Below, piece after piece: positions 5,100 to 54,162 of a stretch of 64,000 nt of DNA (positions are counted from its first letter, which is position 1; each line of letters starts with the position of its first letter). A program made the translations under genes and the position numbers. The notes under the pieces were generated by a model. It had not been told where the DNA came from, did not search any database, and saw nothing but the letters and a program-made list of their open reading frames with translations. The stretch lies in the NCBI RefSeq assembly GCF_965363235.1, contig NC_134842.1, positions 3,375,112 to 3,439,111 on the forward strand, written 5' to 3'. Origin of the DNA: Mytilus galloprovincialis (lineage: Eukaryota > Mollusca > Bivalvia > Mytilida > Mytilidae).

Positions 5100-5154
5100 A
5101 TGCAGAGAACACATGACATGTTAGCTTCTATAGTTTTAGGATTTTTAGTAATTG
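5100..5154 (+). CDS. Gene A exon 1: signal peptide
   Basis: The ATG at 5100 opens a short frame with a hydrophobic core (MLASIVLGFLVI) and ends phase 1 at a strong donor (gtaagt, 5155). This matches the phase-1 acceptor of the first Ig exon; the joined codon is Asp. There is no in-frame coding upstream, so this is taken as the start exon. Confidence 0.65.
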
Positions 5155-8100
5155 GTAAGTTTAGCAGTAAATTATAGCTATTTAAGTGATATTTAACATA
5201 AAGTTTAGATTGTTTTGTGTGTTTGTTTGTCAGTTCTATAATAAGAATGTTTGATATCTTTAAAAAAAAACAGAGAAATTGTTTTTGTTTGTTTCTGTTT
5301 CTTTTTCATGTCGTTTTAGATATATTTGGCATTGATATTCAAATTTGTCATTCACTATTTTCAGTAACTTCTCATATCAACATGATGTTGTCTCGTTTAT
5401 CTATGACTGAAAAACGGAAAAGCAAAGTCTCGAAATCTTTTTGTTTAGGTTCAAAACGCTTTGACGTTGTTTTTTGTTTGTTTTCAAACGTCAAAATGAC
5501 TCTCTTTTAAACCATGTGATAGAAAAAAAAGAACAACGCTCAACCAAATACCAACCAAAGTTGACAACTATAGGTGAATAAACAGCCCTCAACTATCACA
5601 AAACCCACACACATAAAAGGCACAAACAGTTATACCCATCAAAATCGATTAACTTCCTTCTAAGCATTACTGTCATTCAATCTTATGTAAAATATATATG
5701 CCCTTAAAATATGAAGATCATTTCAAACAGAAATGGCTTCTAAAAACGTTGATAAATATCTTAACCAAAATCGCATAGCACAATCTTAACAAAATAAATT
5801 AATGCAGATTACATTCTGTATGCACGTGCCTGTCCCAAGTCAGGAGCGTGTGAATTTGTGGTTGTCGTTTGTTAATGTGTTACATAATTGGTTTTCGTTC
5901 ATTTTTGCATAAATTAGGCCTTTAGTTTTTCTCTTTTGAATTGTTATACATTGTCATTACGGGCCTTTAACCGGGCCTTATATAGCTAACTAACGTATAG
6001 GCTTTGCTTATAGTTAAAGACCGTATGGTGACCTATGTTGTTAATTTCTGTGTCATTTTGTTTTCTTGTTGTCTCAATATGTGTATTATTTTAAGAGAAA
6101 TTCTACGAATTTGTTATTCGACATCATATTTGACATTGCTTATTACAGTAGCTACTTTTAATTATACTAATACAATAACAGAAGATATAAAGGAATATTA
6201 TCTTCAGCTGCTTCTTTTCCACCATTGAAATTATCAAAATCTTTGACCGATTGGAAGTAAATTATTATTCAAAAAGATATCTCTGTGACAAAAGGCCGAT
6301 TCTTTAATATTAAACTTATGCAAGTCTTTTAATGTTAAGAGATAGCTACCCATCACAGTCCAAATATTGTAGATTTACTCAAACTATAACGCAAGGCTTT
6401 ACACAATAAGCAAAATAAAAAGAAACTACATTTATATAACAAAGCTTGGCAAAGATCGTAAACTTCATGTATAACAAAGAAGATCTGGTATGATTGCCAA
6501 TGAGACAACTCTCCACAAGAAAACAAATGTTGTCGTGAAAATAGTTGTATACAAACATCGAGATTGTATATTAATTACATAGGCGTATCAGTGGTTTTGT
6601 TTTCTTTCCTGTGGTGTTTGTCGTTGATTGAATATGTTCGATGTATTCTCTGGTTTGCATGTTGTGATGTGAAGATCTATTTGACTGCAGTTGTTCACGA
6701 CAAGATTTTTACATATAAGATTAATTGGGATTGCCGAGAATGGTTTATAGTCCAGTAGGAGGCATCATTTTTCAAACATATCAGTTGAGGTTGAGCAGTT
6801 CAAACAACACCTCTTGAGCTTTGAAATATTACTTGACATTCGACTAGTTATTATAACAGAATATGGTTTTCCTGTTGAATTTCTGTCATAACTATACCAC
6901 TGTGACGAATGACTTTGGGACGACTGTGCATTAAAAAGGGCGAAATCAGTAGTTACTGTCCCCTTTCGTATTTGAACCATAAACATCGAAATATTGGAAT
7001 TAAAAGGTGCAGTTACAATTTTTTTATCTGACTTAATACTTACCTCAAACATCATCGTTATAATGAGTTACATTTTATTAAAGTTACAGTGAAGTTTATC
7101 ATTCAGACAATAGTATAATTTCCAATTCAAGTAGTTATACATATCTCTGACTATCGGGTACCATAATATCTTCCTTGAGATAAGATATTAACGTTTAATT
7201 ACTTGCCATCCCTTGTAACTATGGTATGCTCTATATGGCACAGTCCAATTAAGGTGGACTCATCCAGGGTTGATACACCCTCGTTACTAGGCAATATCGG
7301 ATAATGGTATTGTCCAATAGTGGTAAATCCCAATCATCCAGGGGTATATAAACAGCCGTCAACAGTCAGTTAGGGTCGGTACTACGATCATATAACATGT
7401 ATCAGTGATAAGATAAATACCTGCTTATTGTTCCAAACATTGGATTCACTGCTCAAGTCTTTTCAATAACTGAAACTTAGCAGAAGAATTACCTTTATAA
7501 GCTATAAGTGAGCTGCATCGAGAAAAGCGGAAGAGCTATAGAGCTAGAAGAGCTTCGTTGATAAAGATATAGATATGGGGGAAAGAGCAACACTATTGCG
7601 AGCCGGTTGAGCTATCTATTTGATATAGAAATATTTTTAGCCACTGGAGCTACAGCGCTAGTGAGTCCCGTACGATTGCCGATAGCTGTTTACATCCACT
7701 TCATTTGAACTGTAGTTGAAAGTGGTCTCATTGACAATCATACCACATCTCCCACGTATGGAAAAAAATACATGTCTTTGGTAATGGCAGCTATCATCAT
7801 TGTCTGAGTAAAACATAAAGAGACAGGATTTTGTCAATGAATCACTTGTCCTCCTTGCCCTTTTTCTAAAAAAGTTAGTTCCAAGACGTAAGAAATCAAC
7901 ATTCATTGTCGAAGTCAAATATAATACAAGATAGTCGTGAGTAACATAATCTTTTTGAGGATTGTTAAGCTATGATAATGATAAAAAGAAACCTATATAT
8001 TGAAGGATGTGGTGAATCATTAAAGTTTGAATTAATCGAATAATTATCATACATTACAGATATGTGCTATGGTGAAAACAAGACGTACGTTTATGTTCAG

Positions 8101-11100
8101 GAAAATAAAACAGTAACATTGCCGTGTAATCCTAACGTACTGGTATGGTGGGGACCAATTAATTTCACTGTATATGCATCAGGAGGGGATATAGACCCAA
8201 ACTTACCGAAGCACAAACGATTGTCTGTGAACTTCAATGAGAATACGAACACATCGGAATTACAAATACAACATTTTTCAAAGGAGGACGAAGGCTTGTA
8301 CAGATGCTCATTTTCCGTGAATGGCAATTATAATATGCCAGTGCTAAACGTTTTGATTAAAAGTAAGCAATTATCTGACATATTTTAACCTTACTTTCTT
8401 AGTATTTGCTTAATTTATCAAAAACAGTATGTTATAATGCATGTTAATACCAAGCCTTGAAGTCATAAAACATTCGAGTCAGTTTTTTGTACTTATACTC
8501 CAAATTAAATCAATCAAAGTGCTGAATTTCATGTTTCGAGCATGAATATTGTGCTCCGAGCACTGAGCAAAGTTTGATGAATTCAACCTCAAAGCCATTA
8601 ATAATGAGCTGATTATACACAATAGAACTAACATTCTATAGCACCACCAGCTGGATCCACTCAGAGACGGATTAAGTAAAAACATTTTACTTTCATTTAG
8701 GACGCTCATACACCCCTTTTTATCCAACAAAAACAAACAAATAAGGATTGTATCAAGCAATATTTATTAGTTATCTGAACAGAAAGAACCTTAATAAAGA
8801 CAATAGTAGTATACCTCTGTTCAAAATTTATCAATCTATTAAGAGAAAACGAATCCAGGTTACTAACTGACATCGAACGAAACACATCAACTATAAGAAG
8901 AAAACAAAAGAAACACTGAATTTAAAAACGAGCTATTTGATAACAATTGCCGTATAACTCAGTCTGACATACTCTTTTTGCAAAAGGGAGTGTGCACAAC
9001 ATAAGGGTTGTTTCCATATTTATGAAGTTTTGTGGTCTATGGAAATGCCCGATTCGACAACTTCAGCGATTGACATGCATACGTTAGAACATGTTCAATA
9101 CCAAACCAATGTTTCGTGACCTTCATTTGATTTAAAATATTAAAATATCTACTCTAAGTATTCTGATTAATGGTCGCAGAGAAGTGATTATGTAGGAGCA
9201 TACTTCACTGTCGTAGATAATATATCGATACTCAATCCACCAGTTTAATATTCATATTGCACATGTTATAATTGCAATTTAAAATTTATAGTCAATAAAT
9301 GAAACAATTCTGATTTGTATAGTTTGTTCTTATGTTGAACTGTTACCTGCTGACATGTTAAAACCGCCACATTATGCATTTATGTTCGTGTCCCAAGTCA
9401 GGAGCCTGTAATTCATTGGTTGTCGTTTGTTAAAATGTAGCATATTATTTTTTTATGTAAATTTCTTGAACATAAATTAGGTCGTCAGTTTACTCGTTTG
9501 AATTGTTTAACATTTGTTATTTTGGGGCCTTTTATAGCTGAATATGCGGTTGGGCTTTGCTCATCGTTGAAGGCCGTGCGGTGTCCTATAGATGGAAATT
9601 TCTGAGTCATTTGGTCTATTGTTGAGCGTTATTTCATTGGTAATCATACCACATCTTTTTGTTACTAATATCATGATAACAATTAATTAATTCCTACATA
9701 ACGCTTTCATATTTTTATATTTATAGAAAATCCAAAAAATATCACGATTTCAGGGACGGACAAAAACAAAAATCTACTGTTTGCACAAAGTGACCAAATA
9801 CTAAACTTAACATGTTATGTCGAAAGTGGTATTCCAAAGGAGACGATGATTTGGAGAAGGAACACAAAGGAGTTAATTCGTGGCGGACCTTCTTCACTCA
9901 CTTACACGTTTACACCCAATCGTACAGACCACATGCAGAATTTTTCGTGTTTGGTACAAACAGACAGCATTTCACTTGAAAAGAAATTCAAGCTGTTTCT
10001 GTATTGTAAGTATAATTGTACATTTCAAATAAGCTTATCATAGATACCATGATTAAATTCGGTACAAAAGACTCATTAGTGACGCTCCAAAAAAAACAAC
10101 CGCCAATTTAAGTACGACGTTGAGAAACATATCATCTAGATGTGTATCAGAATACATACACAAAGAACTAGTCACGATGAAAAACATGTGAACAAGTCTG
10201 TCTGATCTTGACTTTTTAAGATAAGCAGCTCTAAATACGGTAACCATTTTTTTTCTTTAGGACAGGTAAGCATGCTATGTGAAGTTTGTGCAGTGTGTCT
10301 TTTAAGTGTACATAATGATGTCGTTGTTATTGAGAACCAAAGTATCATCTAGATATCTAAAACTGTAATGAAATGTTTGTATCACCATTGGAATTCCGGA
10401 AACATGGCGATATACGAAATCTCCATAGCGAAAATCATGTTGTCAAGTAAAAATTAATTTGCAATAAGCATAACAAAGCACATTTAATTGACAACCATTT
10501 GCATTTGTTTTGTTACTAAAAGTGACATAAAAAGGATTGAACATATGATCGCATTTTGAATTTGTATTTAATGCCAACTTGATTAGATATGTAGATATTT
10601 TGCAAAAGAGATAATTATGAAAAGTGATATATAGGGAAGACAAATAAACAATATATTTACAAATTCGAGAACAGAGCCGAAATATAAAAAAAAAACATTC
10701 AAACCAAGAGCTATTCATTCTGAATGCATAAGTACGTTCAACTTTTGTAAATACTTCACATAAAGATTGATATTGGTATGGTTTTGTACACATTTGAAGC
10801 TAATATATATATATATATATATTGTTACATTTTATAACTACATGAAATAATTTGCATTGGTCTAATAAACTTTGAGTTTATAAATTATTTTACGATTTTT
10901 TTTTCAACTCTCTTTCTGAAGAAGCATTCAATATTTAAAAACTTGTAACTTTTGTTACTAAAAAAAAAGATTAGTCCCGAGTAAAACCCCATATAATTCT
11001 AAGACATGTGAATTAAGTGCAACATAATTATGCACCTGAGATTTGACATGCGGATAGATTTCCCACTGTTTTCTTTTAATACTAATTGTTTCAGTTCTGC

Positions 11101-14100
11101 CAAGTGTACAAATTTTACCAGGAAAGTTCGTTAGCGTTGTGGAGGGAACCAGTGTGAATTTAAGATGTAATTTCACGTCAAATCACAAAATTAAGGAAAT
11201 AATATGGCAATATGATAACAAATATTTGACGAATTCCTCTGAGTTACATCTTGTGTCTATCAAGAGAAATAAAAGTGGAGATTATTCCTGTACAGTTGTG
11301 AACGAGGCTGGAAAAGGTGCTGCAAATGTGACAATAGAGGTGTTGTGTAAGTTGCTTAAGCTTATCTTGCAGATAAATGTAGAACCATTGAAATATTCTT
11401 GGATTCATTTATAATAAAAAGACGCTTTTTCATTTCCGTACCGTCTATAAATATTTATATCTTAATGTTCCAAAATATGAAGCAACTAGCTCGTAGAAAG
11501 AAATATAAGTTTACCATTTAGTGAACATAAATTATCCCAATTTTCTAATTTGAATGGAAATGCAGCTCATTTTCAAGCAGGAACATTTTATTGAATGGTT
11601 CCACAATAAATCACAAGAGAACAGAACTCGTGCTGTGACAGACAAACAGATCGATTCTACGATTTTTGTCTATAAAAAAATATCGAATTTTGATACCACC
11701 GCAAACTTTTCTGAGGCATACTTCGAACCTCTTACTGGAGTTTTTTTGTTGTTGGCTTAATTCGTATATTACGTATTGAGCAGGATAGGCTGTCTGTCAA
11801 AATGAAACATTTGTCGTGTTCGCCCAAAACAAATTGTTTATCGGCAGATGTATATAAAATAATAATGTGAAAGCATTATAATCAAAGGTTTTATTTATTT
11901 TGATAGTCCTCATTTACCCTATTTTCCCTTGTATTGTTTATCTGTGATATCAATCACGACTGTAATATTCAGATTGATTATGATAGCTTTTTTTGTCAAT
12001 GAATTGTGGGGTGTCCAAATGGACTAAGATGTCGAACACCTGTATCACTAGCTATTAAACAAAAGGGTAGCATGTAGTGAGTTCGAATCCAACACGGGGC
12101 AACTGCACTCTATAATTAAATTATTGATTGTCAGTTTTCCTGTCTACGGTGGTTTTCTGTAAGCGCTCCGGCTTTCTTAGACAATAAATACTTACCACCA
12201 CGATATAGAACAATAGTGTTGAACGTGGGGTTGAACAGCAATCTACCAATCAATTATCATAATTGACCTCTGAACTATATATCTCGCATCCTACCTTTTA
12301 CATGAACATGTTATTTGTAAGGCCAACGTATTTAATATAGCATTTTGTATAAACATGCATGTGGTTTCAAAGACTTTTAAATATATTGATAACACATAAA
12401 TTGTTTGGTTGCTTGATTACTGGTTAAAAATTTATTACCAAAGAAAAGAATAAGCTTTATTGTTGAGATAATTCGTTTGGAATAGGGGCATTAAGGCCTA
12501 GTTTTGGCCCATGAAAATAAAATGTTTGATAACCATTTCAAATCGGCACATAATGTTTAGAAATGCATAGGGTCAAGAAATATAAATGAAAAACAGAAAG
12601 ATTTTTATCTGATGACGTCACAATTACGTCATAATATGTACGGTTTTCACAAAAACGATGAAAAATACAGAATTTATGCAGTTTTCTATCTTTACTTCCG
12701 TCGAGGAAACATCCAGCCGAGAAACAACAAAATAATTTAACAGAAGCTTTATTATAACTATTGGCATAATCTCACCAAATATAAAGTTGTTTCTTTGGTG
12801 CGCACATACTTTTTCAATCTAAAATATACTTAAAGTTTGATGAAAAAACAAGGAAAATCACGAAATTTAACAAAATATGCATATTAGGTCATGATTTGTT
12901 GCCATGGTAACTTGTTCGATGTCAAATTTGTTTTGTTTTTCTTAGTACCATATACCTTGGTCAAGTTATTAGTGATTTAAAAATATGTATGATTACTTCT
13001 AAGTTTGAAGTAATTTTTGGGCCAAATAAGGGCCTTATTGCCCCTACTCTTTGAATCCAAAAAATTCACTTCCAACCTTCGACAGAATAACTGGAAAAAC
13101 TAGTAAAAAAGGTTGCAATCAAAAGAACCTAACGGACGCGGGTTTTGAAGTTCATGCTCACTATTGAGGATTATGGATCTGTGTAGAAATACAATTCAAA
13201 TATTCATCTATATAGACCCTTATATTAAATAACAGGTTAAAACACAATGACACACGAATAAAAACTGCTCCGTCAAAAATGAACACATCTATGCATGAAA
13301 TTGTTTTCTCAAATGTGTTGTAGTTTGTAAGTAATGAATGCATTTATTAAGATGCTTCTTTCGTTCAATCTTGTTTAGTAACTTAAATACTTTTTTTCAA
13401 ATTAGTAAGCCAAGTTTTATGTTAAGTAAAATCATAACAATACCGAACAAAGAAGTCACGCCCTTTTTCGCAAAATGTTCATTGAAAAATATCAATAGCT
13501 AATAGATTAATATTCAGTGCTACTTACAAATAGTACCCGATAATCTTGGGTTATAGTTTGTAAGTGATGTCGTTGTGTATCGTTCTATCAAGTGTACAGT
13601 TTTTATAAAGTTTTAAAATATTGTTAAGATTATGTTTCATCAGTGTGAAAAATAAATACACATAAACACATACATATATTAATAAATATCCTTTCATTTT
13701 AGATCCACCTGACGTAACAGTTTCTTTTTCTGACATAGATGAGACCAGAGAATTAAAATGTAACCCCGATGGTTTACCAAATAAGTATCACTTTGGTTAT
13801 TGGGAACATAAATCAGAATTAAGAGAACATATACGATTTATATCTTCCACAAGGAATGGAACAATAACTATTCAAAACATTACAAATGAAACGAATAGAC
13901 ATTATGATAGAGGGATATATATTTGCAACGTATCCAATAACATATCTGTAAACGACAGAACTTTCATGTCAGCTGAATATTGGCTCAATAGTACTGGTGA
14001 GTGAAACATAAAAAAAAGTTGTTACTTGTACTTAACATTTGCTTCAAAAATATGTAAGGAATAATAATTAAATGTTTTTTGTGTTTGTCCCAAGTTAAGT

Positions 14101-17100
14101 AATTCAATGGTTTTCAATGCTGTGTTACATTATTGTTTTCGTTCATATTTTTAAATCAACATTACCGCTTGCTCAACATGGAATCGAAGCAGGTTAACAG
14201 GAGACTGTATCTGTAAAATTACAAATAAAGCTAATCATTATTTGTGTATCTGTAATTTGTAGAAACATTTCTATTATATTTCAAGTTTCAAATCACTTTT
14301 TGATCAGATCAAGTGTAAGCTAGCTATAACACCAGGTAAAATCCACCATTTGTACAGAAGGTTTAAACTAAATTTGCCCTTATATGTCAAAACAATTAAT
14401 TTTTTACAAAATAAGAAGTTGACTGTTCATCGTCCATCAATTATGAACTATCCAAATGTGTCTCCATTTTATATATAAATAGGAAATACGGAGAAGCTGT
14501 AGGTGATCACATGTTTCTTTTTATTCATTTATTTAGTAAGTTAGTTTTCTTTGTATCTTTTGTTTTAAGGGAGATGGATATATTAAAAAAAATATATGAA
14601 ACTAAATGAAAACTGTCAAATGCAGTATTGAAATCTGAATTTATAAATCCAGTTGCACTTCATAAATGACAAATAACAATCTACCTAATATAAAAGATAA
14701 ATGAATGTGTGCTTTGATTTTTCCTTGGATCTCGATATTTGTGCTTTTTACTTTATACTGAGTTTTATTTAAGTGCTTTTCTAAGCTTCTTATTTGATAT
14801 CGCTTTTACCTTATGTGTAAACGATATATATGGCATTCAAATTCTCTATTTAAACTTGAGACGAACTAATTGGTAGTTTATGTTTTTAAGCAATCCTGTG
14901 GTAGTACATGTAATTGATATGAGGTAAATAAAACTGTCATCCTTCGTTCCAGCTTGATTAAAGATGAATGACTTGAATAGAATATAAATTCAAAGTTTGT
15001 TTTTATTGTAATTCATATGTATATTTTATGGTATCCTTACAGGTAAACCGTACTTTGTGACATCAAACAGTGGGACCCAATACGGCATTATTAACCAAAT
15101 TGCTGTGTTAACTGCCGATATTGTTACTTTCGAAAATCTCCACGATGCTGCACTTTTCTCCGAGAAAACGGAAATATTGAACTATATCAGTATCAATCAA
15201 TCAACTGTTATTGTTAAAGATACTATGTACGGCAACAATATTAAAGTGCATGGTACTCGTCTGATGTTTCCACTTTTCATTAAAACTCCTGATTACTTTC
15301 GACAATACACAGCTGTAGTAAGTAATTCAAAAGGATCATCAAGATATGACATCAGACTTATATCTGCAAGTAAGTACCAATTTACATATTAGTATTAGAA
15401 TTAAAATCCAACAGTTTCAATCAGTATTCAATGCAATTAAGTCGTAAACTGAATGGAAATGAAGCCATCTTCAACATTATCTATTTCTATGTTTCGCAAT
15501 TTTAATTTGAAATCTTCTGCATGTCTGTCAGCACTAAACGGTCAATGTGAGCAAAATTTACAAGCCTGTGTATTTTTTTTTGTGATGGCGGTTTGTAGAT
15601 GGTTTGTTTATATTGACACTAATTTGATTGCTGGTTGTGTACACTTTATTTGTTATGGATATTTTTTCATATTCCATATTCGTTATTTTCTATGTCTATA
15701 CCTATAGATATTCCTAGCTATGTATCATCAAAGCTCTCATCTTCTTTATAGGATTAAACATTACCCTCTTTTAGCGTTCACGGAAATTGTGTTATTCCAG
15801 GGGAATTGAATTGTTTCCGAGTGTAACTCATTTACATATAATAATTTTGTTTATTTAAGGACTAAACATGGTGAGTATTATGATGGAAGCAAGAAAAGAT
15901 GACACTCAAGTCTTCCATTCATAATATTAAGTCTTCTTGAAAGAGTGTTTTGGGTCGTTGATTCTATGCTCGCCAACTTTTCACTTCGTTATGTTTTGTC
16001 TGTTGTTCTAATTGATAACGTTATGGTCATCACATTTGTATGCGGTTATATGAAGTTTTGTAACTTACTTCATCAAAAAAGACTTTACATGGTTTTGTGT
16101 ATGACACATTTTGGCTTCGTGTTTATGATTTGTATCAAATGCACAACATCAGGAGCTTTATATCCTAGTGGGATATCAGCATCCTCGATTAGGTTCAATC
16201 ATGAATGTGATTTAGAAGAAGCGTTTTCCCGTTAGGAATCCAACCAATCATCTGTAGAAGGAGCATAACCTATTACAAACCAATCCATATATAACATCTT
16301 TAAATCTATCGTTTAACGTAAACCGACTTTGTCAATTTTCTCTGTACGTTTGGTGCACGTCGGTCTATACGTCAATGTTGACGCCGGCATTATGAAGACG
16401 AAACGCGCGTCTGGCGTATTAAATTATAATCCTAGTACCTTTGATAACTATTTACACTTAAAAAAAAACCCATGAAAATGTGATGAACACACGAATCACG
16501 ACGCATTGTAAAATATAACTAAATGAATTCGATAGACAGCTTTTTAAAAAAATATTTGAAGTTCATGTGCATTTTAATGGTCAGAATGGCTTTTTTTTAA
16601 TCATCTTCCATAGAAAATAAGTAATCCTGAGATTTTAAATAATACAGTTATATATTCTAATATGCATTTGTTTTATTAAGTTTCATTAAATTTGGTTATA
16701 GGCAGGCCTGCACCCCCAACCCTTATTCGATTTATGTCAAAACAAACTGGAATCCAAGTAAGCTGGATACCAGGATTTAACGGCGGATATCCACAAACGT
16801 TTTACGTTCAATATCGCAGAATCGACGATACCAACTGGGAAACCCATAACGTCTCCAATGGAAAACAAAACACAACTACAACACTGGTGTCCAATCTTGA
16901 ACCTGGAACAGAATATTTCATTCGAATGTTTGCAAGAAATGAAATAAATGGTAGTAATTACACCAGACAGTACACAGTGCAAACAGGTAATTTTATATTA
17001 ATGTATCTACAAACACGATGATTTTAAGATATTAAACGTTTTGTTACAAAAATATATAGCCGTAAGAATATTTTATTTATCGTTTGGTGCGTTGCAAATT

Positions 17101-20100
17101 GCTATGGCAAACTTAAAAGAATCTTTAAATAATCAATAAACATGAACCTCGATATATTACCGATATATTAAACATATTCTTTGCAGTTCTCAGAACACCA
17201 CAAGGTAAATAAGAATTCATGGCAGGGGTATTGTTTTAAACATATTTACAAATTGAACATAGCGTTTCAACAATGTAAATACATATAGACATATTAAAGA
17301 AATTAAATGACGTTCGTTCATGAATATGTCAAGCTCAAAATTACCCGCGTCTAACACAATGGTGATTAAATTGAATAAAAACTATCAAAGATTTTTTAAT
17401 AAACACCAAACATCCGAATTAACAAAAAAACATAAATTTTGCATACGATGACTACGTACCAGACTTGGATAGGCAATTAATTAGTTTGTAGATTTTAAAT
17501 TGATGTGCTGATATTAAATCGACACTACAGACGAAAAGATATTGATAAAGGTTTCTGTCTGTAAACGACATCAGCCGAGATGAACTTTAACAATATAGGG
17601 ACAAAAGGTCAACAAAAAAGCGCCATATAAGCTTACCTCCAATAAACAAATTTGACATGTTATCACATGTTGCCGTCCGAAATTGTTATATTAGTTACGT
17701 TACTTCGCAATTTTTGTTTAATGTTAGGTCAGAATTCTCTTCAACTTCGTACTTTATGTGGCCTTTATAAACTTTTCGATTCGAGCGACACTAATGGAAA
17801 TAAATGTGTATAGATACAATTGCACTTAATATGTAGGAAAACACACTGGTTCTTATAATAAAAAAAGGGAAGAGAAAGTATCATATAGCAATAAAATTTA
17901 AATTAAAAAACTTTCTTTATCATGTCTATGAAATATATTGGTTCACGGTCCCAGTTGTTTCTTTTTATCAAAATGATATATATTTTTAACAAAGTTATCT
18001 AATAAATAGTATGTTAATGCTTAGTTTTCTCTTTAGGTATCATTGTTTTCTGTCAACTGTGCCATTTGTGGATATGTAGTTATTATCGTAAAATGCGGAT
18101 TGTTGTCATATCTGGTCCGATTCCGACCAGTGGTTTACACTAAAATATTAAATGGCCGCCGATAGCAATGAAAAATACGAAAATAAAACAATGTTTGACA
18201 AGAGATTGGGAATAAATATGTTGTTTTTTAATGCATTAAATGGATGAAACATAAACTAAGCCAATTATGATCACTTTCTAAAGAAAGTACAAAACTTATA
18301 CAGCTCAAAATCAAAATTTTCACTCTCGATTTACAACTAGTGATAGGAAGAGAAAGAAAGTAATACTAATATTTTGAAAGTCATAAAGAGATAAGACTCA
18401 ATCTCTTTTTAAAAGAGAAAAATGTTTGTTTCTTTGAATTTTCATTTTGCAAACATATATTTTAATTTATTTTATGATTTTCTGATTACATTTTCTCCTT
18501 GTCGAAATTTGCGATTGCATACCACGTGGTATTAATCATGTCACAAGTGACAGCTTGGGGAAATCGTATGCAACCAGTTATCACCCAAAGGGCAATTAAC
18601 ACCTATGTAATCACTTTAAATTGCCTTTATTGTCCGACTTGAAGGGATTACAATTAACGGTGATATATTTTTTATGATCATCAGCGGTAATTAGATGAAA
18701 GTTCACAATTTAGGACATGGCTTTGCAACACAGAAAAGAGAAAAATAAAATCCTGAAAATAATTATAGCGTCTCGGAAATTATTATAGCGTCACGGGAAG
18801 AAAATGTAGCGTCGCCTGGGGAGAAGACTGCTTTATAGATGAAACGCAATGTTAATCATTGTATATAAGATAAGTTTATTTGTACAGCAATGTCAATAAA
18901 AGACATTGTTTCAAAATAAAAACAAAGTAATATGTATTCTCCATTGAAATTTACGTGTTTACTTCCGAAATTCTTATTTCACATGATGTTATTCGAAGAA
19001 TGAAAGTTTTTGTAAGTTCTTATATGCTTTTTACTTGATTCATCTTTCAGAAAATGAAACGAGTCCTGGTTTGATAGCAGCATTTTCCATGATTGCCATC
19101 GCAGTAATAGCTATTTCCTTTATAACGTATCAGTATAAAACAGGTGTGTATATGACAGTGTAGATGATATTAGATATAAACATCATAAAAGTATTAATTA
19201 TTAGTATATCAAGAATTGGTTGACTAACGTATGGATTTTAAAATCTTTGTACTTTTTAAAGAAATTTTCGAAATTCTTTACAATAAACAATTCATAAATT
19301 CTGTGTAAATCAGATTTATAGTTCATGTTATTTCAGGGAATTTGACAGATATCAGAAATATGAGGTATATTTTCCTAATTATATAGTTAATGCCTCTTTA
19401 TTCTTCCTTTTGTATCGATGTACGTTATATACATGTATATGTTTAGTGTGTAAATATTGATAAAAATAGTCTGATTTGATCATTTAGGCTTAGATGCATG
19501 ATTTTCTTATTAGTTGTTATTGGCTTTGAACTAACTGTCAATAACTGCGAGTACTCTCTGATCAGTAATAAGAATCCGTTGTGTTGTTGGGATGTACCGT
19601 CCACTCAGTGTTTTTTAGGTGTATTTCTAGTTGTATCAAAAGTTACATCTTTGTTAATTGATTACTAGTGTTATAGTTTGTTCTTATGTTGTTTTGTGAC
19701 ATCATTAGCCCAAGTTAGGGGAGGGTTGTGATCTCGGTATCATGTTGAACCCCGTCACATTCTAAGTGAGCAGCCAGTTATTAAATGGTTGTAGTTTGCT
19801 GCTGTGTTGAAATATTTTTTTTAATTTTTTTTATACAAGGTGACCTATAGTTGTAAATTTCTGTATGGTTTGGTATTATATGAAGAGTTTTCTAATCGCC
19901 AATTATACCATATAATCTTTTTTTTACACCATGTAGCCCATATGACCAGTTTGATCAAATACACTTTGCCTACTGTTATTATTTATTTATATCTAAGAAA
20001 TTGTTAAAAAAAAGATAAACAATGTGTACAGTAAATGATTAAAGAGGGACGATAGATACCAGGAGGACATTCAAAATCACGAAAAATATAAAAAAATAAC

Positions 20101-23100: not shown

Positions 23101-26100
23101 ATATAAGCAGATTCTGTTTTCGATTCAAAAGGACCAGGTTAAATTTCGTTTTTCGTGAGGTACGTCTTGCTCAGTATTTACTTGTTAAGATAGTGTTGTG
23201 TGTCTTTTCATCTTAATGTCGTGTTTTACCACGGCATTTTTTTATTAATGCCTTTTCAATGTCCCTTCTGCATTTTCGATCACCAGTTTGTAATGCGTTA
23301 CCTTTTATGATACTCGCCAATTTATAAGTGGCATGATGGAAAACACAAAAGTTTACTGCAAACATATGCATTAGTTATCTCCAAGTATGGTATCAAATGG
23401 TATTATAGATAACATTTATTTTTAAGATAAAACTGATCAATACATATACTTCCAAATCACACAATTCGTCGTTAGTGGCATGAATGATTCTTTTCTTCTA
23501 TACAATACAAATTTATGAATTTATTGAAATAAAAAACATGTTGTTTACGCACACTTAATTGTTTGCATTCTATTTTATATATTTTTGTCTTTCCGAACCT
23601 TTTATCTCCAATGTAACATAAATTAACTGTACCACTTTTACTGCAATATTTATAATTCTATAATACTCGATAACGGCTATTCAACATGTTCAGGTAGCAC
23701 TTCTCTCGCGTACGGGAATATTATCAAAGGGATGTGTTGTGTGCTTTTTTTAAGGGAGGGGGAGTTTAACATATAAATTATTTAAAAAATGCAAATTAGC
23801 AAGTTATGTTTTAGCAGGAGACATAGGTGGTGTCGAAAATGATATGTATGAAATGCAAAACAACATACAACAACAACAACAACATGAACTTGGGCCTGAA
23901 AATCCTGAGGTTCCTGTGTATTCCTCTATAGACAGACGACAGCATTTATCTATTGGTAGCGCTGTATCTTATTCCGTGACAAAGAACAAAAAACCAAACC
24001 CATTAGGGTGTCGAATGCAACAGAAAGGTATAGTTTGTTATCTGTTGATCGTCGAGATATATATATATTTTTGTTAGTGTGACAAGACTAAAATATACTA
24101 AGACCTAGTTATTTTGTTATAACCTGCTTATCATTTTTTTACACATTTTTATTGTATGGACAGATCAGAAGACAGTAATTTACCTGATAGCAATTACTCT
24201 AAAAAAAAACATTCAGCCTCGAATACTCAACAGGATCTAATAAAGTCATTTCAAATAAAACAAATTACGTATTTCATAATATATTTGTACCATACATGCT
24301 GCATATTCATAACATAAATATATTAATATAAATGTGCACGAGGGTATTGCATTTTCCATGAGCAATAGTTTGAAACATGTGATTATTTTTGACAGGTGAA
24401 CATAAAAAAACAAACATGGCTGGAATGTCTACACCAAAAACGAATGACAATGAGGTTGGTAAAAACAGTCTGTTATGCATCAGAAAGATGTATTAAAACA
24501 AAGTCAGGTTTAGTAGAGTATAAGTTTTTGGTTTTCCTAAATCACTGATAGGGAACAAGCTAAGTTCTATTTTATATGGAATTTAACTGATTTCATCTAC
24601 AGTAGCACTTGTACTGAAGAGACATTTTTTAGAGAAACTGACCTTATTAGATAGGTTAACCCGGAATTAAGGTTCAATATAAATAGCTATAGTTACATTT
24701 GAACAGGAAGGTCCCTTACTAGCAAGCTTTGACGCAATATAAATCTGATTCTACACATATTATATAAAGCAATAATGACAGAGTTTAAATTTTTCGAGAT
24801 ATAATCTATATTGTGACGATTGTCGTGTTATAGGAAAAATGGTCATATACCGTGAGGTCTGTGGTATGATATGAAACTGGAAAAATTCAAAACATTTGAA
24901 TGATATATGTACATAATATAGCCGTGTTCATAGTAATTGAGAGCTGCTATAAAACATGTGTACATACACATAAATAAAAGGATCTCAACATAAATTGATT
25001 TTTTATGGTATAAAAATGAAATTGTGAATAGAAATTGAGAATGTGTCAAAGAGACAACAAACCGACCAAAGAGCAAACAAAAGCCAAAACCACCAGTCTG
25101 TCTTAATAGCGATAAAATCTCAAACCCGGCGACTGGCTTCAGATGACCACTAAATAATGTGTACAGTTTAGCAAAAATAGACGTCTGACTCAACTCCAAA
25201 ACATAAAAATGGAAGTTAAGTAATAACATGAAACTCACCTAAAACAAGTACTCAAACAGCTGTTCCCGAAGGGTTAATAGTTTCTGCTCCGAATATTGCT
25301 CTCGAATTAGGATTGAATGATGATAACTGAAATGTCACGGACTTACCACAATTGGATCTAATATTAAAAGTATTTAGATGCCCAACAAATGAAAACATGA
25401 TTTGTGTATGTCGCCATCTTACTCATCTGTCACGATCTTGATGTATCAAACATGCTATCCAGCATGTGCATTGACATGTTGATAGAAAGTTAACAATTTT
25501 GTATTACGGTTATTCAAAAATTACATAAACCTGAAATTGTTTCATCAAAGTCGCTGATCAAGTTAGACAGCATATGATAACACCAAGAACCAATTCCAGT
25601 TTTAAGCCTTATTAAGGTAAGGTTTGCATGAAACCAGGATTTTTTTCTTAGTGATATTACACCAATATGATACATCATTTTGTTCAGGGAGGAGTACCCA
25701 ATCATTTAATGAAAAAAAATCAAACATCGCCCGTTCAGTTTTTTCATGTGAAAAGCTCAAAATTCCGATTTTTGACGATTTTTAGGGAAAATTGTATTTG
25801 AATTCTTCTGAAATAATAATGTATGCAAGTGACTATAAAAAATAAAACTAAACAAAACATGTATAAATAATTGTGGTCCATTCATTAATAATAAATTTTA
25901 ATTAAAAAAATCATGAAAAGTTCCTAAAAACAAGATTTTTTAATTTTTGGGTTAAAAAAAAACCTGTTGCCATGGCAACAAAAAGCCAAAAATATCCTTT
26001 TTCCGGGTCCACCGTTTCTGTAAAAAACTGTGAATTTTAGGATTTAGCTATTTGCATTATAATGAGCTAATAAAATTGGTATGTCCCCGAACTCGTTTTT

Positions 26101-28503
26101 ACGGAAATGGGCGTTATGTGTTCATGTTGTCATTTCTGTAAAACACAAAAATATTTTGTTTGTTGATCTCCAAAGAAGAGAGTCATCTTTAATAGCATCT
26201 TTTTACAAAGATACATTTTGTCTTGTAACACTTTGGGACTGCCATAGTCAATGAGAGAAAACAGTGATTAACTTAGGGATGACATCAAAAAATCAATGTA
26301 GGATAAAAAAAAAACTGAATTCAAATAGCTTGGGGGGGGATAAAAGTTGCTGAAAGTTTTTATTAATTTGACATCGATTTTACATATATCCATATTGGTC
26401 AATCAAATTTTTCCCAAATTAAGTTAAGAGGGGGGAGGGGGTCAGTGAACAAACTATGTGAATTAAGTTTTTTTTTTTATCCTACATTGAACTTTTGATG
26501 TCGTCCCTTAACTTTTATGCCCACAACTATCAGTCGGAAGGGGAGGTGTTTAAATTTGGTCATACTTGTGTACTAATACATGTACAAGACTCTGAGTTTG
26601 AAGGAATGTGTCCATGGGACATTGATGATGCCCCCTCTTGCATAAATATAAACCATTATAAAGCATTACGTATAAATTTTATAACATTTGGTTGAAGCAA
26701 ACTAAAGGTAGAGAACAGAAATGAAAAATTCAGAAAAGACCTCATAAAAATACTCCGAGCGTCGTCACTACTTCATTATGATCTCCTATATATATACGGA
26801 GAAAGACTAAAAACTAACAATTTCCCGGACTGTGTGTAGAGACACCTGTTACCATCCTTGTTTTTAGATAAATTAATTCAAAGTTGACTGATATGCATAG
26901 AAGTTTGTTTGATTAGGGTTTGTAAAATGTCCGGTGGCAAATACTTCAGGTATGTTCAGGACGACACAATACAATAGGTGTGTCTGAAAGACACATTTTT
27001 AATGCATCCATAAAAAAAATACGAGTAGAAACATTCCGTCAGTTGTAAAAGTGATTGATAAAATAACATATATTTCGAATGATGTAAACGTGTGGGTTGT
27101 GTGCGTATTTGCGGATAAACCTTGCAAACTGTACATTTGAAAGACCAAGTCAACATTCTGCCATTCGTAAAAATTATGCAATAAAAATATCTGAGAATAT
27201 ATATATGCATCCTCTATAAGTAAAACACATCAGTGGCGCATTATGTGAATTCCAACCATTTTAAACGAAATTGACTAAAAGTGTCACAAAAAATGTGTCG
27301 TTTTTCACTCAATCCTGAGTTTCTATAATTTGTATTTATACTTTATAAAAAATCGGAAACGGCGTGCATCAGACTTACAAATTCAATGAAAGAGACAGCT
27401 TAACAGTCAGTGAAAAAATTATCGGGGTTCTTGGAGCAGAATAAACAACACTTCTATCTTGTGAAGGGACAGGACGGGGACAAGCCATCAAAACACAAGA
27501 TATTAGATCGATTTCTGTTGAAATGAGCTTCCCATACATTAGTTTTTTTAAAGGTTTTACGGCGGGCGACAAGAGAAAAGGGACGGGAGAAAGGAGAAAT
27601 GTGTACCCTGTCCGATCCCTCATAAATCTAGATATGTAAAAGTGACGACATCAAAATTCAAATTTATTCTGTGTTTTTGTGGTAAAAAGCATTATGCATA
27701 AGTTTTACATATCAGTTGGTTGAGGCAAACTAAAGTTAGAGAACGGAAACCAATTTTGTAAAAACGGACGTGCATTTGGATGGATGTACACACAGACAAG
27801 GATAAAACTCAATACCCCCTTGCTACGGCGGGGGCATGAAAATGTACATTTATGAAATGAAATAAAATAAAATTCATCGAAACTTTATGAATGGTTTTTG
27901 CACAAAGACGTTACGGCTTAACGTGACGTCATATAAATGAAAACTAACAAACTGAAGGTCATAACGTTACTTGTACGATTCAAATTTTGATAAAATTACA
28001 TCAAAACGGCGATTTTGAGGTAGGTGTTGTTTTATTTTCGATAATATTGTAGTTATCGAACATTGGTTAATCAAAGCAATTCAAAATGGCGGATCTCTCC
28101 TTTTTTCAATTATTTGAATTCGAGTTATCTCCCTGTGTACGCAAACCTTACCTTAAATGCATAATCGCTCAGAATAACAACAGCAAAATATCCATATGTT
28201 GCATATTACTGAATGCGATAGTTTGTCATTGATTTATATGTGTATCAATTACAAAAGGTATGTATTGTCTTCTTTTCTTTTTCTTTAAAGGAACTAAACT
28301 ACATTGAAGTCTGCTTTGACAAAAAGCCACAACATCCGTTTAAAATTCATGGACTTGAGGAAAGATCAGACTATGTTGAAATTGACTTCACCAAGACAGT
28401 TGATCGACTACCAGATTGCGACAAAGATGATGTAAGCGATGACGATTTCGTTAGTCTTGAAGACGTAAAAAGCATGAAACGAAAAACTCAATTCACAAAT
28501 TAA
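5100..28503 (+). CDS. Gene A: IgSF/FN3 transmembrane receptor with tandem ITIM-like motifs (spliced)
   Basis: Assembled by eye from acceptor/donor sites and phase: 5100-5154, 8060-8362, 9727-10005, 11095-11346, 13703-13996, 15043-15369, 16702-16986, 17187-17204 (microexon), 19051-19143, 19337-19364, 23037-23065, 23815-24027, 24396-24454, 28291-28503. The summed length is 2448 nt, divisible by three, giving 815 residues. Layout: signal peptide 1-18; Ig1 19-119; Ig2 120-212; Ig3 213-296; Ig4 297-394; Cys-less Ig-like 395-503; FN3 504-598; transmembrane helix about 612-631; tail 632-815 with polyQ, LNYIEV (Tyr749) and SDYVEI (Tyr773). Every ectodomain exon is phase 1-1. A poly(A) signal lies 230 nt after the stop. 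Family knowledge: ITIMs recruit SHP-type phosphatases. Inference: a surface receptor with inhibitory signalling. Least certain are the microexon and the 28/29-nt exons. Confidence 0.8.
5820..6110 (+). repeat. Interspersed repeat, family R1
   Basis: Begins near CCTGTCCCAAGTCAGGAG and runs through GGGCCTT...TATAGCT...GGCTTTGC. The same blocks in the same order recur at 9330-9660, 19675-19915 and 21885-22235. Probably a SINE- or MITE-like family; the family name is not known to me. Confidence 0.7.
7214..7660 (+). promoter_or_regulatory. TATA-containing, LTR-like segment in intron 1
   Basis: Begins TGTAAC, as many LTRs do. It has a clean TATA box (TATATAAA, 7345-7352) and an initiator-like TCAGTT at 7366-7371. 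No second LTR, purine tract or target duplication was found. It could be a degraded solo LTR or an internal promoter; neither is proven. Confidence 0.3.
8060..8362 (+). CDS. Gene A exon 2: Ig domain 1 (V-like)
   Basis: Acceptor acattacag, donor gtaagc, phase 1-1. B-strand Cys (VTLPC), Trp (VWWGP) and the F-strand signature EDEGLYRC are present. It has several N-glycosylation sequons (NKT, NFT). The paralogous exon is at 54493-54786. Confidence 0.9.
8363..9726 (+). other. Gene A intron 2
   Basis: 1.36 kb containing a reverse-orientation repeat block (about 8800-8960, related to 44710-44960) and an R1 repeat (9330-9660). No coding exon recognised. Confidence 0.5.
9330..9660 (+). repeat. Interspersed repeat, family R1
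   Basis: Same ordered blocks as at 5820-6110, ending with the family's characteristic tail (aatcataccacatct). Confidence 0.7.
9727..10005 (+). CDS. Gene A exon 3: Ig domain 2 (C2-like)
   Basis: Acceptor ttatag, donor gtaagt, phase 1-1, open over 93 codons. Has LTCYVESGIPK, MIWRR and the F-strand FSCLVQT, a pattern like the second domain of CD80- or nectin-type proteins. The paralogous exon is 61658-61939. Confidence 0.9.
10006..11094 (+). other. Gene A intron 3
   Basis: Contains a fragment of repeat family R2 (about 10030-10150) and a TA dinucleotide run (about 10801-10822). No coding exon seen. Confidence 0.5.
11095..11346 (+). CDS. Gene A exon 4: Ig domain 3 (I-set-like)
   Basis: Acceptor gtttcag, donor gtaagt, phase 1-1, 84 codons. 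Has VNLRC, IIWQYD, GDYSCTVVNEAGKG and four or more N-glycosylation sequons. The paralogous exon is 62762-63025, ending with the same T-I-E/Q-V segment. Confidence 0.92.
11347..13702 (+). other. Gene A intron 4
   Basis: 2.36 kb; its centre is an inverted-repeat element (12483-13046). The rest is AT-rich without recognisable exons. Confidence 0.5.
12483..13046. mobile_element. 564-bp inverted-repeat element
   Basis: Ends are imperfect inverted repeats of about 29 bp: TAGGGGCATTAAGGCC at the left against the mirror of GGCCTTATTGCCCCTA at the right. TA at both ends may be the target duplication, suggesting a Tc1/mariner-type MITE. No transposase ORF. Confidence 0.6.
13703..13996 (+). CDS. Gene A exon 5: Ig domain 4
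   Basis: Open for 98 codons between acceptor cattttag and donor gtgagt, phase 1-1. Begins PPDVTV, with B-strand ELKC, a Trp (GYWEH) and F-strand GIYICNVSN. The exon contains no useful Met early on, which is why simple ORF calling misses it. The paralogue starts at 63760 with PPTVNV and shares G-L-P-(N/D), WEH and GLYIC. Confidence 0.9.
13997..15042 (+). other. Gene A intron 5
   Basis: Short fragments of repeat R1 (about 14085-14155) and AT-rich sequence only. Confidence 0.45.
15043..15369 (+). CDS. Gene A exon 6: Ig-like domain 5 lacking the cysteine pair
   Basis: Acceptor tccttacag, donor gtaagt, phase 1-1, 109 codons. The pattern is Ig-like: TADIVTFE where a B-strand Cys is expected, and YTAVVSNSKGSS where the usual form is YxCxVxNxxG. 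Neither core Cys is present and no other Cys occurs in the exon. N-glycosylation sequon NQS present. Confidence 0.8.
15370..16701 (+). other. Gene A intron 6
   Basis: Contains repeat family R2 at 16315-16455. Longer ORFs at 15453-15707 and 15945-16235 show no domain and no coding-like features. Confidence 0.45.
16315..16455 (+). repeat. Interspersed repeat, family R2
   Basis: Carries the family core GACGAAACGCGCGTCTGG and the tail ATCCTAGTACCTTTGATAAC. The same core appears in reverse at 21400-21820, 38425-38790, 44320-44480 and 50910-51065, and forward at 55800-56120. Confidence 0.75.
16702..16986 (+). CDS. Gene A exon 7: fibronectin type III domain
   Basis: Acceptor ggttatag, donor gtaatt, phase 1-1, 95 codons. 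FN3 hallmarks: PAPP start, VSWIPGFNGG, a TFYVQYR strand, LEPGTEYFIRMFARN (the LxPxTxY-x-x-R/V-x-A-x-N signature). As usual it sits between the Ig array and the membrane. Confidence 0.93.
17187..17204 (+). CDS. Gene A microexon (18 nt, probable)
   Basis: An 18-nt segment between a very good acceptor (ttctttgcag) and a donor (gtaaat) keeps phase 1 and would add six residues (V-L-R-T-P-Q) to the juxtamembrane stalk. Skipping it also preserves frame, so it could be a cassette exon. Confidence 0.45.
17205..19050 (+). other. Gene A intron before the transmembrane exon
   Basis: AT-rich 1.8 kb; no recognisable repeat boundaries or exons seen. Confidence 0.4.
19051..19143 (+). CDS. Gene A exon: transmembrane segment
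   Basis: Acceptor catctttcag, donor gtgtgt, phase 1-1. Encodes a short glycosylatable stalk (NETSPG) followed by about 20 hydrophobic residues (LIAAFSMIAIAVIAISFI) and then T-Y-Q-Y-K-T, giving a type I orientation. Confidence 0.88.
19337..19364 (+). CDS. Gene A small cytoplasmic exon (28 nt, probable)
   Basis: Lies between acceptor ttatttcag and donor gtatat; enters phase 1 and leaves phase 2. Only together with the 29-nt exon at 23037 does it restore phase 1 for the next exon, which supports both. Confidence 0.5.
19675..19915 (+). repeat. Interspersed repeat, family R1
   Basis: Degenerate copy: CCCAAGTTAGGGGAGG, a GGTGACCTATAG block and an ATTATACCATATAATC tail in the family order. Confidence 0.6.
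20043..20575 (-). pseudogene. Degenerate reverse-transcriptase element fragment (family R3)
   Basis: Reads on the minus strand as the C-terminal end and 3' region of an RT element. The same blocks (a TGTCGTAAC-like block, GGTGCCAGATGTGGAGC, and the end GGTATCTATCGTCCCTCT) recur at 40030-40420, 43125-43770, 52590-53285 and 55005-55790. No intact frame. Confidence 0.6.
20603..20750. repeat. Long palindrome (hairpin-forming)
   Basis: Two arms of about 60 bp, left from GTGTATTACGATATTTCTCC (20616) and right ending at 20735, are near-perfect reverse complements around a G/C-rich centre near 20675, with weaker symmetry outside. It resembles one end of a larger transposon that may extend to about 21010. 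Confidence 0.75.
21400..21820 (-). repeat. Two R2 repeat cores in the same orientation
   Basis: AGACGCGCGTTTCGTCTAC occurs near 21430 and again near 21783. The segment between them shows the longer family body (GTGATACCCTAGGGGAAG and similar), also seen at 38425-38790. Confidence 0.75.
21885..22235 (+). repeat. Interspersed repeat, family R1
   Basis: One of the most complete copies: TGTCCCAAGTCAGGGGCC, GGGCCTTTTATAGCTG, GGGCTTTGC, and the end GAGTTGTCCCACTGGCAATC. Confidence 0.75.
22253..22375 (-). repeat. Repeat block shared with 30470-30565
   Basis: Both places carry ATAAGATGAAAACAACG, AACAACAGTAACAATGACAT and TTGATATCAACTGTACTATT in the same order, so they are copies of one dispersed repeat. 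Confidence 0.65.
23037..23065 (+). CDS. Gene A small cytoplasmic exon (29 nt, probable)
   Basis: Strong pyrimidine-rich acceptor (attttacag) and donor gtaatt. Entered in phase 2 it is open and leaves in phase 1, matching both neighbours; the other entry that stays open does not fit downstream. Confidence 0.5.
23815..24027 (+). CDS. Gene A cytoplasmic exon with polyQ
   Basis: Acceptor is a tandem ttagcag (NAGNAG), so splicing may include or omit one residue. Donor gtatag; phase 1-1, 71 codons. Contains a CAA-encoded glutamine run and tyrosines in YEMQ, VYSSI and SYSV contexts. VYSSI fits YxxPhi but not the full ITIM consensus. Confidence 0.8.
24396..24454 (+). CDS. Gene A cytoplasmic exon, 59 nt
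   Basis: Acceptor tttttgacag, donor gttggt (weak but GT). Enters phase 1, leaves phase 0, as required by the last exon. Encodes a short Lys/Thr/Asn-rich linker. Confidence 0.65.
24455..28290 (+). other. Gene A last intron
   Basis: 3.8 kb. Holds a repeat fragment (about 25020-25260), a MITE (26276-26507) and AT-rich sequence. ORFs of 60-130 codons here match repeats or lack any domain. Confidence 0.5.
26276..26507. mobile_element. 232-bp MITE with TTA target duplication
   Basis: Inverted ends of about 40 bp starting GGGATGACATCAAAAAATC and mirrored by TTTTGATGTCGTCCC. TTA lies directly outside both ends (26273-26275, 26508-26510). Same class signature as the element at 2699-2920 but different sequence. 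Confidence 0.8.
28291..28503 (+). CDS. Gene A last exon: tandem ITIM-like tail
   Basis: Acceptor ttctttaaag, phase 0 entry, 70 codons then TAA. Contains LNYIEV and SDYVEI, both fitting (I/V/L/S)-x-Y-x-x-(I/V/L), with 24 residues from Tyr to Tyr. The rest is acidic (DKDDVSDDDF). Tandem spacing of this order is typical of receptors binding the two SH2 domains of SHP-type phosphatases. Confidence 0.88.
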   Translation, partial: ELNYIEVCFDKKPQHPFKIHGLEERSDYVEIDFTKTVDRLPDCDKDDVSDDDFVSLEDVKSMKRKTQFTN

Positions 28504-36432: not shown

Positions 36433-36596
36433 TTATACAGGTTGCAACATTGAACTGAAATGAATACTAGGTCTCGAAAGTCTTGATTGTTTCCATTTAC
36501 GATAACAGTAGACTGCCAAACAACAACCCACAAGCAGGCATCCTGTTAATGTTGCCATAATTATCTGTACAGTTGTATTATTTGTTTCCGATGAGT
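36433..36596 (-). CDS. Gene C last exon: transmembrane and short tail
   Basis: Acceptor tattttgaag, phase 1 entry. A glycosylatable stalk (SSETNNTT) precedes about 20 hydrophobic residues, then RKWKQSRLSRPS and a stop at 36433-36435. Confidence 0.8.
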
Positions 36597-54110: not shown

Positions 54111-54162
54111 GGATTGAGAATAAGAATTTCACAACTGTTTAGTCTTTTCCTTACATTTTCAG
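54111..54162 (+). CDS. Gene B probable signal-peptide exon
   Basis: Acceptor atatttttag, donor gtaaga, phase 0 in and 1 out. Encodes LRIRISQLFSLFLTFS, signal-peptide-like and in phase with the first Ig exon. The ATG must be in an upstream exon, as no ATG is in frame here. Confidence 0.42.

What the first reader, a model, noticed from the sequence alone, without database searches (positions are those of the whole stretch)
28291..28503. Tandem ITIM-like motifs in a bivalve IgSF/FN3 receptor (gene A)
The last exon encodes LNYIEV and SDYVEI, both full matches to the ITIM consensus, with Tyr-Tyr distance 24. Established: vertebrate receptors such as PECAM-1 and SIRP-alpha use two similarly spaced motifs to engage the tandem SH2 domains of SHP-2. 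Seen: this tail is joined by phase-consistent exons to an Ig(5)-FN3-TM receptor. Inference: an invertebrate inhibitory-type surface receptor.
Basis: partly seen in the sequence, partly recalled or inferred. Interest (0 to 1): 0.8.

Follow-up and report, generated by a model that had tools for sequence, protein, structure and literature searches.

The report
Mussel receptors with paired inhibitory-type motifs
A mussel cell-surface receptor ends in a tail with two tyrosine switches, spaced as in the vertebrate immune "brake" PD-1, and the same tail piece occurs at least 22 times in the mussel genome, so mussels may use a whole set of such brakes; whether they really brake anything is untested.

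Summary
Exon 28291-28503 encodes LNYIEV and SDYVEI, Tyr-Tyr 24, in the phase-0 last exon of a Mytilus gene with five Ig folds, one FN3 and one TM. Shuffles of the exon give such a pair in 27 of 100,000. Public Mytilus protein models run through the same exon order. The window's genome holds at least 22 copies of this tail exon: all 22 keep motif 1 (LxYxx[VIL]) and motif 2 ([ST]xYxx[IV]), Tyr-Tyr 24-28, at median pairwise identity 42%; the only invariant columns are Leu-2 and Tyr of motif 1 and Tyr of motif 2. Motif 2 is T-type (ITSM) in 20 of 22; gene A has S. Both motifs fit the SHP-2 N-SH2 pattern, and SHP-2-like exons lie in the genome. Best reading: a clustered family of IgSF receptors with a two-site ITIM-ITSM docking exon for SHP-2. 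Phosphorylation, SHP-2 binding, expression and inhibition are inferred. ITIM-type receptors are already reported from oyster, amphioxus and Botryllus; the conserved multi-copy PD-1-like cassette is the new part.

The parts
5076..5154 (+). candidate signal-peptide exon of gene A (MSHATSNVMQRTHDMLASIVLGFLVI, donor TTG|GTAAGT, phase 1)
   Evidence: best of three candidates passing the ATG + hydrophobic + phase-1 donor filter upstream of 8060, two of them at this same donor; weak, no homologue support
8060..8362 (+). Ig domain 1 (V-set)
   Evidence: V-set 3.5e-8; AG/GT, phase 1
9727..10005 (+). Ig domain 2 (C2-set-like)
   Evidence: C2-set_2 5.9e-5; phase 1
11095..11346 (+). Ig domain 3
   Evidence: Ig_3 1.3e-9; phase 1
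13703..13996 (+). Ig domain 4
   Evidence: Ig_3 1.1e-4, below the Pfam cut-off; 53% to P0002
15043..15369 (+). Ig domain 5, no cysteine, no Pfam match
16702..16986 (+). fibronectin type III domain
   Evidence: fn3 1.6e-10
19051..19143 (+). transmembrane exon, symmetric phase 1
   Evidence: Kyte-Doolittle 19-residue peak 2.6; aligned with the TM region of P0007
19337..19364 (+). optional juxtamembrane micro-exon (28 nt)
   Evidence: with 23037-23065 restores phase 1; GNL..CF..FI.QV resembles P0007
23037..23065 (+). optional juxtamembrane micro-exon (29 nt)
   Evidence: as above
23818..24027 (+). cytoplasmic exon with conserved MYEMQN, VYSSID and SYSVTK tyrosines
   Evidence: 76% identical to P0002 over 72 columns
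24396..24454 (+). cytoplasmic linker exon, phase 1 to 0
   Evidence: AG/GT borders
28291..28503 (+). last coding exon, ITIM/ITSM docking cassette and stop
   Evidence: 22 genomic copies
28294..28311 (+). motif 1, LNYIEV
28366..28383 (+). motif 2, SDYVEI
54486..63995 (+). paralogue gene B (Ig exons near 54486-54788, 61660-61938, 62761-63024, 63762-63995); its tail exon lies 3' of the window (G000:C5:3447064-3447258) with LSYIEV and TNYVDI
   Evidence: 78-83% to M. edulis P0008; public model P0010

Best explanation
Gene A is one member of a clustered mussel family of single-pass IgSF/FN3 surface receptors that share a last exon working as a two-site docking cassette. On ligand engagement a Src-type kinase would phosphorylate the proximal ITIM (mostly L-x-Y-[IV]-E-[VI]-x-F) and the distal ITIM/ITSM ([S/T]-x-Y-x-[DE]-I-D-F in most), 24-25 residues apart in most copies; the two SH2 domains of the mussel SHP-2 homologue would bind both, opening the phosphatase at the membrane, where it would dampen neighbouring tyrosine-kinase signalling, as PD-1, BTLA and SIRP-alpha do. 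Shown here: the exon and its join by phase and by relatives' models, domain folds, conservation, family size, SHP-2-like exons in the genome. Inferred: phosphorylation, SHP-2 binding, inhibition, an immune setting, the ligand.
For: Motifs and spacing. Relatives' protein models carry the same tail on Ig/FN3 ectodomains. 22 of 22 genomic tail exons keep both motifs; only three columns are invariant, all motif-defining. SHP-2 N-SH2 pattern (hydrophobic -2, +1, +3, +5; acidic +2, +4; PMC8007070, passages): gene A scores 5 of 6 at both sites; none of 390 other distinct Tyr contexts in the same 16 proteins reaches 5. Over the 22 exons motif 1 is hydrophobic at -2, +3, +5 and acidic at +2 in 22 of 22 each; motif 2 is [VI] at +3 and acidic at +4 in 22 of 22. 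Motif 1 LNYIEV lies close to the IRS-1 site LN-pY-IDL, one of the highest-affinity N-SH2 ligands (PMC8591604, passages). PD-1 and BTLA: ITIM and ITSM tyrosines 25 apart (PMC8631942, passages). Same genome: SH2, SH2, PTP, PTP exons in order on one strand (C13, 58.073-58.053 Mb); three of the four were compared with the PDB and match PTPN11 best: N-SH2 2e-27 (PTPN6 3.5e-17), C-SH2 4.7e-37 (PTPN6 1.8e-25), PTP 1.1e-17 (PTPN6 5.1e-16); Gly13 is kept and Val14 is Ile.
Against: No transcript, phosphorylation, binding or functional data. Gene A is absent from the public models returned. Copies were found by similarity to the motif exon, so part of the conservation comes from the search. Two of the 15 proteins that reach motif 1 have Val instead of Tyr (P0014, P0015), and P0015 has lost +3 of motif 2. 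Motif 1 lacks the acidic +4 in 14 of 22, and motif 2 has S/T, not a hydrophobic residue, at -2 in all 22. In four less related IgSF proteins 2 of 148 Tyr contexts also reach 5 of 6. In PD-1 itself one study found that the ITSM, not the ITIM peptide, bound SHP-2 SH2 domains, and that ITIM-ITSM activated SHP-2 far less than ITSM-ITSM (PMC7078208, passages). ITSMs can also bind SH2D1A/B adaptors, and SHP-2 is often a positive signaller (recalled).
Confidence: 0.6

Rival explanations
1. The cassette recruits SHP-2 (or an SH2 adaptor) but the output is activating or adhesive: the proteins act as cell-adhesion receptors using SHP-2 as a positive signaller, as Gab/IRS docking proteins do.
For: Public names are NCAM, nephrin-like, DSCAM, DSCAML1, HMCN. 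Closest PDB chains by profile are titin, CEA and DSCAM, by fold contactin-2 and Robo2 at low TM-scores of 0.18-0.30 on a model of mean pLDDT 59.5. The motifs resemble IRS-1 sites as much as PD-1 sites. Motif 2 is ITSM-type in 20 of 22, and ITSMs in some receptors bind SH2D1A/B.
Against: ITIM then ITSM with 24-25 spacing copies PD-1/BTLA; clustered, diversified ectodomains are more usual for recognition receptors (inference).
Confidence: 0.25
2. The two sites are YxxPhi endocytic/sorting signals read by AP-2 without phosphorylation.
For: YIEV and YVEI fit YxxPhi, as ITIMs generally do (recalled).
Against: Conservation extends to -2, +2 and +5 of motif 1 and -2 and +4 of motif 2, which a YxxPhi signal does not need, and the spacing is held at 24-28 in 22 of 22.
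Confidence: 0.1
3. Gene A is a silent or decayed copy; only its paralogues work.
For: No public model of gene A returned; signal exon only a weak candidate.
Against: Ten core exons without stops, consensus splice borders and one consistent phase scheme; the two large tail exons 76% and 60% identical to M. coruscus P0002.
Confidence: 0.12

Closest known systems
Oyster CgIgIT and CgIgIT2 (J Immunol 2020;205:2402 and Dev Comp Immunol 2023;144:104708; titles seen only in the reference list of PMC11999971)
   Same: Bivalve IgSF receptors; the titles report IgIT-mediated inhibition of the antimicrobial response in oyster hemocytes and an immune inhibitory receptor.
   Different: Sequences were not held, so no comparison was made; the review section read calls the CgIgIT2 motif an ITAM although the title it cites says inhibitory. 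No family of tail exons was seen described in the texts read.
PD-1 / BTLA
   Same: Proximal ITIM, distal ITSM, Tyr spacing 25 (PMC8631942, passages); this family 24-25 in 20 of 22 copies.
   Different: PD-1/BTLA have single-Ig ectodomains (recalled); here five Ig folds plus FN3. No sequence homology is claimed.
SIRP-alpha / CD33-type Siglecs
   Same: IgSF receptors with paired motifs (recalled); SHPS-1 pY470 and pY429 score 6 and 5 of 6 on the same N-SH2 pattern.
   Different: No ectodomain orthology tested; no FN3 in those (recalled).
Amphioxus BbLcLRR (PMC8211107, abstract) and Botryllus FcoR (PMC12065747, passages)
   Same: Invertebrate receptors with ITIM or ITIM-like motifs; BbLcLRR inhibits TCR signalling in Jurkat cells through its tyrosines.
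   Different: BbLcLRR is an LRR receptor and FcoR a V-sushi-C2 receptor; neither text seen describes a fixed ITIM-ITSM exon cassette.
Oyster CgSiglec-1 (PMC5877582, passages)
   Same: Mollusc Ig receptor; blocking antibody raised apoptosis and phagocytosis.
   Different: Two I-set Ig domains; sequence not compared.

Membership tests
ITIM/ITSM-bearing inhibitory receptor | at least one S/I/V/LxYxxI/V/L in the cytoplasmic tail | tested here: met
   two in gene A; 22 of 22 copies have motif 1
ITIM/ITSM-bearing inhibitory receptor | second site TxYxxV/I (ITSM) or ITIM at PD-1/BTLA-like spacing | tested here: met
   gene A SDYVEI at 24; T in 20 and S in 2 of 22 copies, spacing 24-25 in 20 and 28 in 2
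ITIM/ITSM-bearing inhibitory receptor | single-pass surface receptor, tail inside | tested here: met
   Ig/FN3 exons and one TM peak; P0007 model (mean pLDDT 59.5) has one TM helix and a disordered tail; by sequence only, and the signal exon is only a candidate
ITIM/ITSM-bearing inhibitory receptor | SHP-1/SHP-2/SHIP partner in the same organism | tested here: met
   SHP-2-like SH2, SH2, PTP, PTP exons on C13, three compared with the PDB; one transcript not shown
ITIM/ITSM-bearing inhibitory receptor | tyrosine phosphorylation, phosphatase recruitment and inhibition | not testable with these tools
   needs bench work
ITAM receptor | two YxxL/I separated by about 6-12 residues (recalled) | tested here: not met
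   tail Tyr at 10, 34, 51, 93, 117; no pair of YxxL/I that close
NCAM (name given to P0002) | five Ig plus two FN3 (recalled) | tested here: not met
   one FN3 exon in the chain between the last Ig and the TM
Oyster CgIgIT orthologue | sequence orthology | not tested
   no CgIgIT sequence held; tail searches returned only Mytilus, and they reach only relatives sharing exact 5-residue words

The most novel reading that the evidence does not exclude
Mussels run a many-locus inhibitory checkpoint array: at least 22 largely clustered loci, of which those examined with success encode IgSF/FN3 receptors with diversified ectodomains, all end in one exon-encoded, two-tyrosine SHP-2 docking cassette with PD-1-like order and spacing, so that bidentate ITIM-ITSM-to-SHP-2 braking arose or was elaborated in molluscs independently of, or before, the vertebrate system.
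Probability: 0.4. Interest if true: 0.78.

Novelty: new member of a known kind. Interest (0 to 1): 0.58.

Why it matters
If true it gives a bivalve, which lacks vertebrate-type adaptive immunity (recalled), a large set of receptors with the SHP-2 docking geometry known from vertebrate checkpoints. It makes an old question directly testable: whether ITIM-ITSM bidentate SHP-2 signalling is ancestral or convergent, using short tail peptides and the mussel's own SHP-2.

Tried and rejected
Rejected: ITAM (spacing); NCAM proper (one FN3); chance motif. PDB sequence search with the tail exon found nothing meaningful (best E 0.36). Pfam on eight further window ORFs gave nothing at E 0.01. The AlphaFold model of P0007 is poor (mean pLDDT 59.5), so its whole-model fold matches are weak. 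Of 11 other tail-exon loci searched 10-20 kb upstream with family proteins, Ig/FN3-like exons on the right strand were found in 6 (loci of L002, L003, L004, L007, L008, L013) and not in 5 (L005, L012, L014, L015, L016) at E 1e-3; the remaining loci were not examined this way. Literature: ten searches. 'tyrosine-based inhibit' + 'Mytilus' gave 4 papers, and in the passages seen none concerns a Mytilus ITIM receptor; most subscription papers are not held. No tail homologue outside Mytilus was returned, which does not show absence. Codon-level selection could not be tested: only proteins of the other species were at hand.

Full report

Where it is. The window lies at G000:C5:3375112-3439111 of a 1.38-Gb assembly. 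So the species is very probably M. galloprovincialis (inference).

Relatives. The full model finds five proteins at E 1e-3 among 7,991 scored: M. coruscus P0002 (50% over 74%) and four distant IgSF proteins from snail, mosquito, fish and starfish. The tail finds P0002, P0007 and P0008; the P0007 tail finds 14 proteins, itself included, 13 named Mytilus and the window's own P0010. These searches reach only relatives sharing exact 5-residue words. Gene A itself was not returned as a public model. Of gene A plus 15 relatives, 15 reach motif 1: Tyr in 13, Val in 2 (P0014, P0015). 14 reach motif 2: Tyr in 14, full [ST]xYxx[VI] in 13. Residue -2 of motif 2 is S in two (gene A, P0017) and T in twelve. 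Spacing between the two sites is 24 in gene A, P0019 and P0020 and 25 in the other eleven. Gene A against P0002, which lacks Ig domain 2 and the TM: ectodomain 42% of 478 aligned, tail before the last exon 70% of 88, last exon 62% of 63. P0007 against P0008: 77, 91, 97%. For P0009 against P0010 the difference all but vanishes (88, 91, 89%), so faster ectodomain change is not universal. P0019 has a different membrane-proximal tail and only about 24% identity in the ectodomain, yet ends in the same cassette.

Genome census. Gene A's exon finds 16 places at E 1e-3; gene B's exon finds 22 at E 0.01, including those 16. These are lower bounds by the tool's own note. The 22 lie 13 on C5, 5 on C6, 2 on C7, 1 on C3 and 1 on C14, with local clusters such as C5:3.40-3.66, 46.6-47.5 and 84.1-84.6 Mb. 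Three matches are reported with a stop inside; in the translations the stop follows both motifs. All 22 carry LxYxx[VIL] and [ST]xYxx[IV]; spacing is 24-25 in 20 and 28 in 2. Pairwise identity has a median of 42% and a minimum of 23%; the only columns invariant in all 22 are Leu -2 and Tyr of motif 1 and Tyr of motif 2. Because the copies were found by similarity, part of this comes from the search; but retention of gene A residues over the first 35 columns averages 9.7 of 21 against 21 of 21 for these three. Ig or FN3 exons were found upstream in 6 of 11 other loci examined.

How it likely works. PMC8007070 (passages) gives the SHP-2 N-SH2 pattern: hydrophobic at -2, +1, +3, +5 and acidic at +2, +4. 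Gene A scores 5 of 6 at both sites; none of 390 other distinct Tyr contexts in the same proteins reaches 5, while 2 of 148 in four less related IgSF proteins do. By class, in the 22 exons, motif 1 keeps -2, +2, +3 and +5 in 22 of 22 and +1 in 21, but acidic +4 in only 8; motif 2 keeps +3 and +4 in 22, +1, +2 and +5 in 20, and has S/T at -2 in all. The near match of LNYIEV to the IRS-1 high-affinity site (SLN-pY-IDLDLVKD; PMC8591604, passages) and the 25-residue spacing of PD-1 and BTLA (PMC8631942) make bidentate SHP-2 docking the best reading. A caution: for PD-1 one study found SHP-2 activated mainly through two ITSMs, not ITIM plus ITSM (PMC7078208, passages). A partner exists: on C13, one strand, in order, SH2 at 58073086, SH2 at 58066293, PTP at 58057130 and 58052643. 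Both SH2 exons and the last PTP exon have PTPN11 as best PDB match, the PTP exon by a small margin over PTPN6; the other PTP exon was not compared. The N-SH2 exon keeps Gly13 and has Ile for Val14, the site said to favour a hydrophobic -2 residue. Phosphorylation, binding and sign of output remain inferred.

Known or new. Invertebrate ITIM-type receptors are reported: oyster IgIT (title in a reference list only), CgSiglec-1 (passages), amphioxus BbLcLRR (abstract), Botryllus FcoR and Hydractinia candidates (passages). So this is a new member of a known kind; the multi-copy, exon-encoded ITIM-ITSM cassette with near-constant spacing was not described in the texts seen. The inhibitory claim needs bench work.

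Noticed in passing
window 54108-54160: Gene B's signal exon reads stop-GLRIRISQLFSLFLTFS where P0009 and others read MRISQLF; no in-frame ATG lies between that stop and RISQLF, and the public model P0010 starts at an internal Met. Possible start loss or an unmodelled upstream exon.
   Followed up: partly
P0002 (M. coruscus) and P0009 (M. galloprovincialis): Both models lack the TM region, which in gene A is a symmetric phase-1 exon; could be a soluble isoform or a model error.
   Followed up: no
P0014 (M. coruscus) and P0015 (M. californianus): Motif-1 Tyr is Val in both; P0015 also loses +3 of motif 2 but has an ITIM match LVYSSI further up: natural variants worth testing.
   Followed up: no
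22 genomic tail exons, L001-L016 and L039-L044: A linker around IHG..[DEN][RK] between the motifs and a downstream DPLP are often conserved without an assigned role.
   Followed up: no
window 40800-41153 and 36433-36669, minus strand: A weak Ig-like exon (Ig_3 E 0.009, under cut-off) and a TM-like ORF without a Pfam match between genes A and B: a possible third IgSF gene.
   Followed up: no
window 23818-24027: Three further conserved tail tyrosines (MYEMQN in 10, VYSSID in 11, SYSVTK in 11 of 13 rows). Their readers are unknown.
   Followed up: no
P0019 (locus of L008) and its M. trossulus relative P0020: Nephrin-like Mytilus proteins with the same end cassette plus an extra ITIM VLYAAV and AEYASV, DEYAVV sites.
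   Followed up: partly
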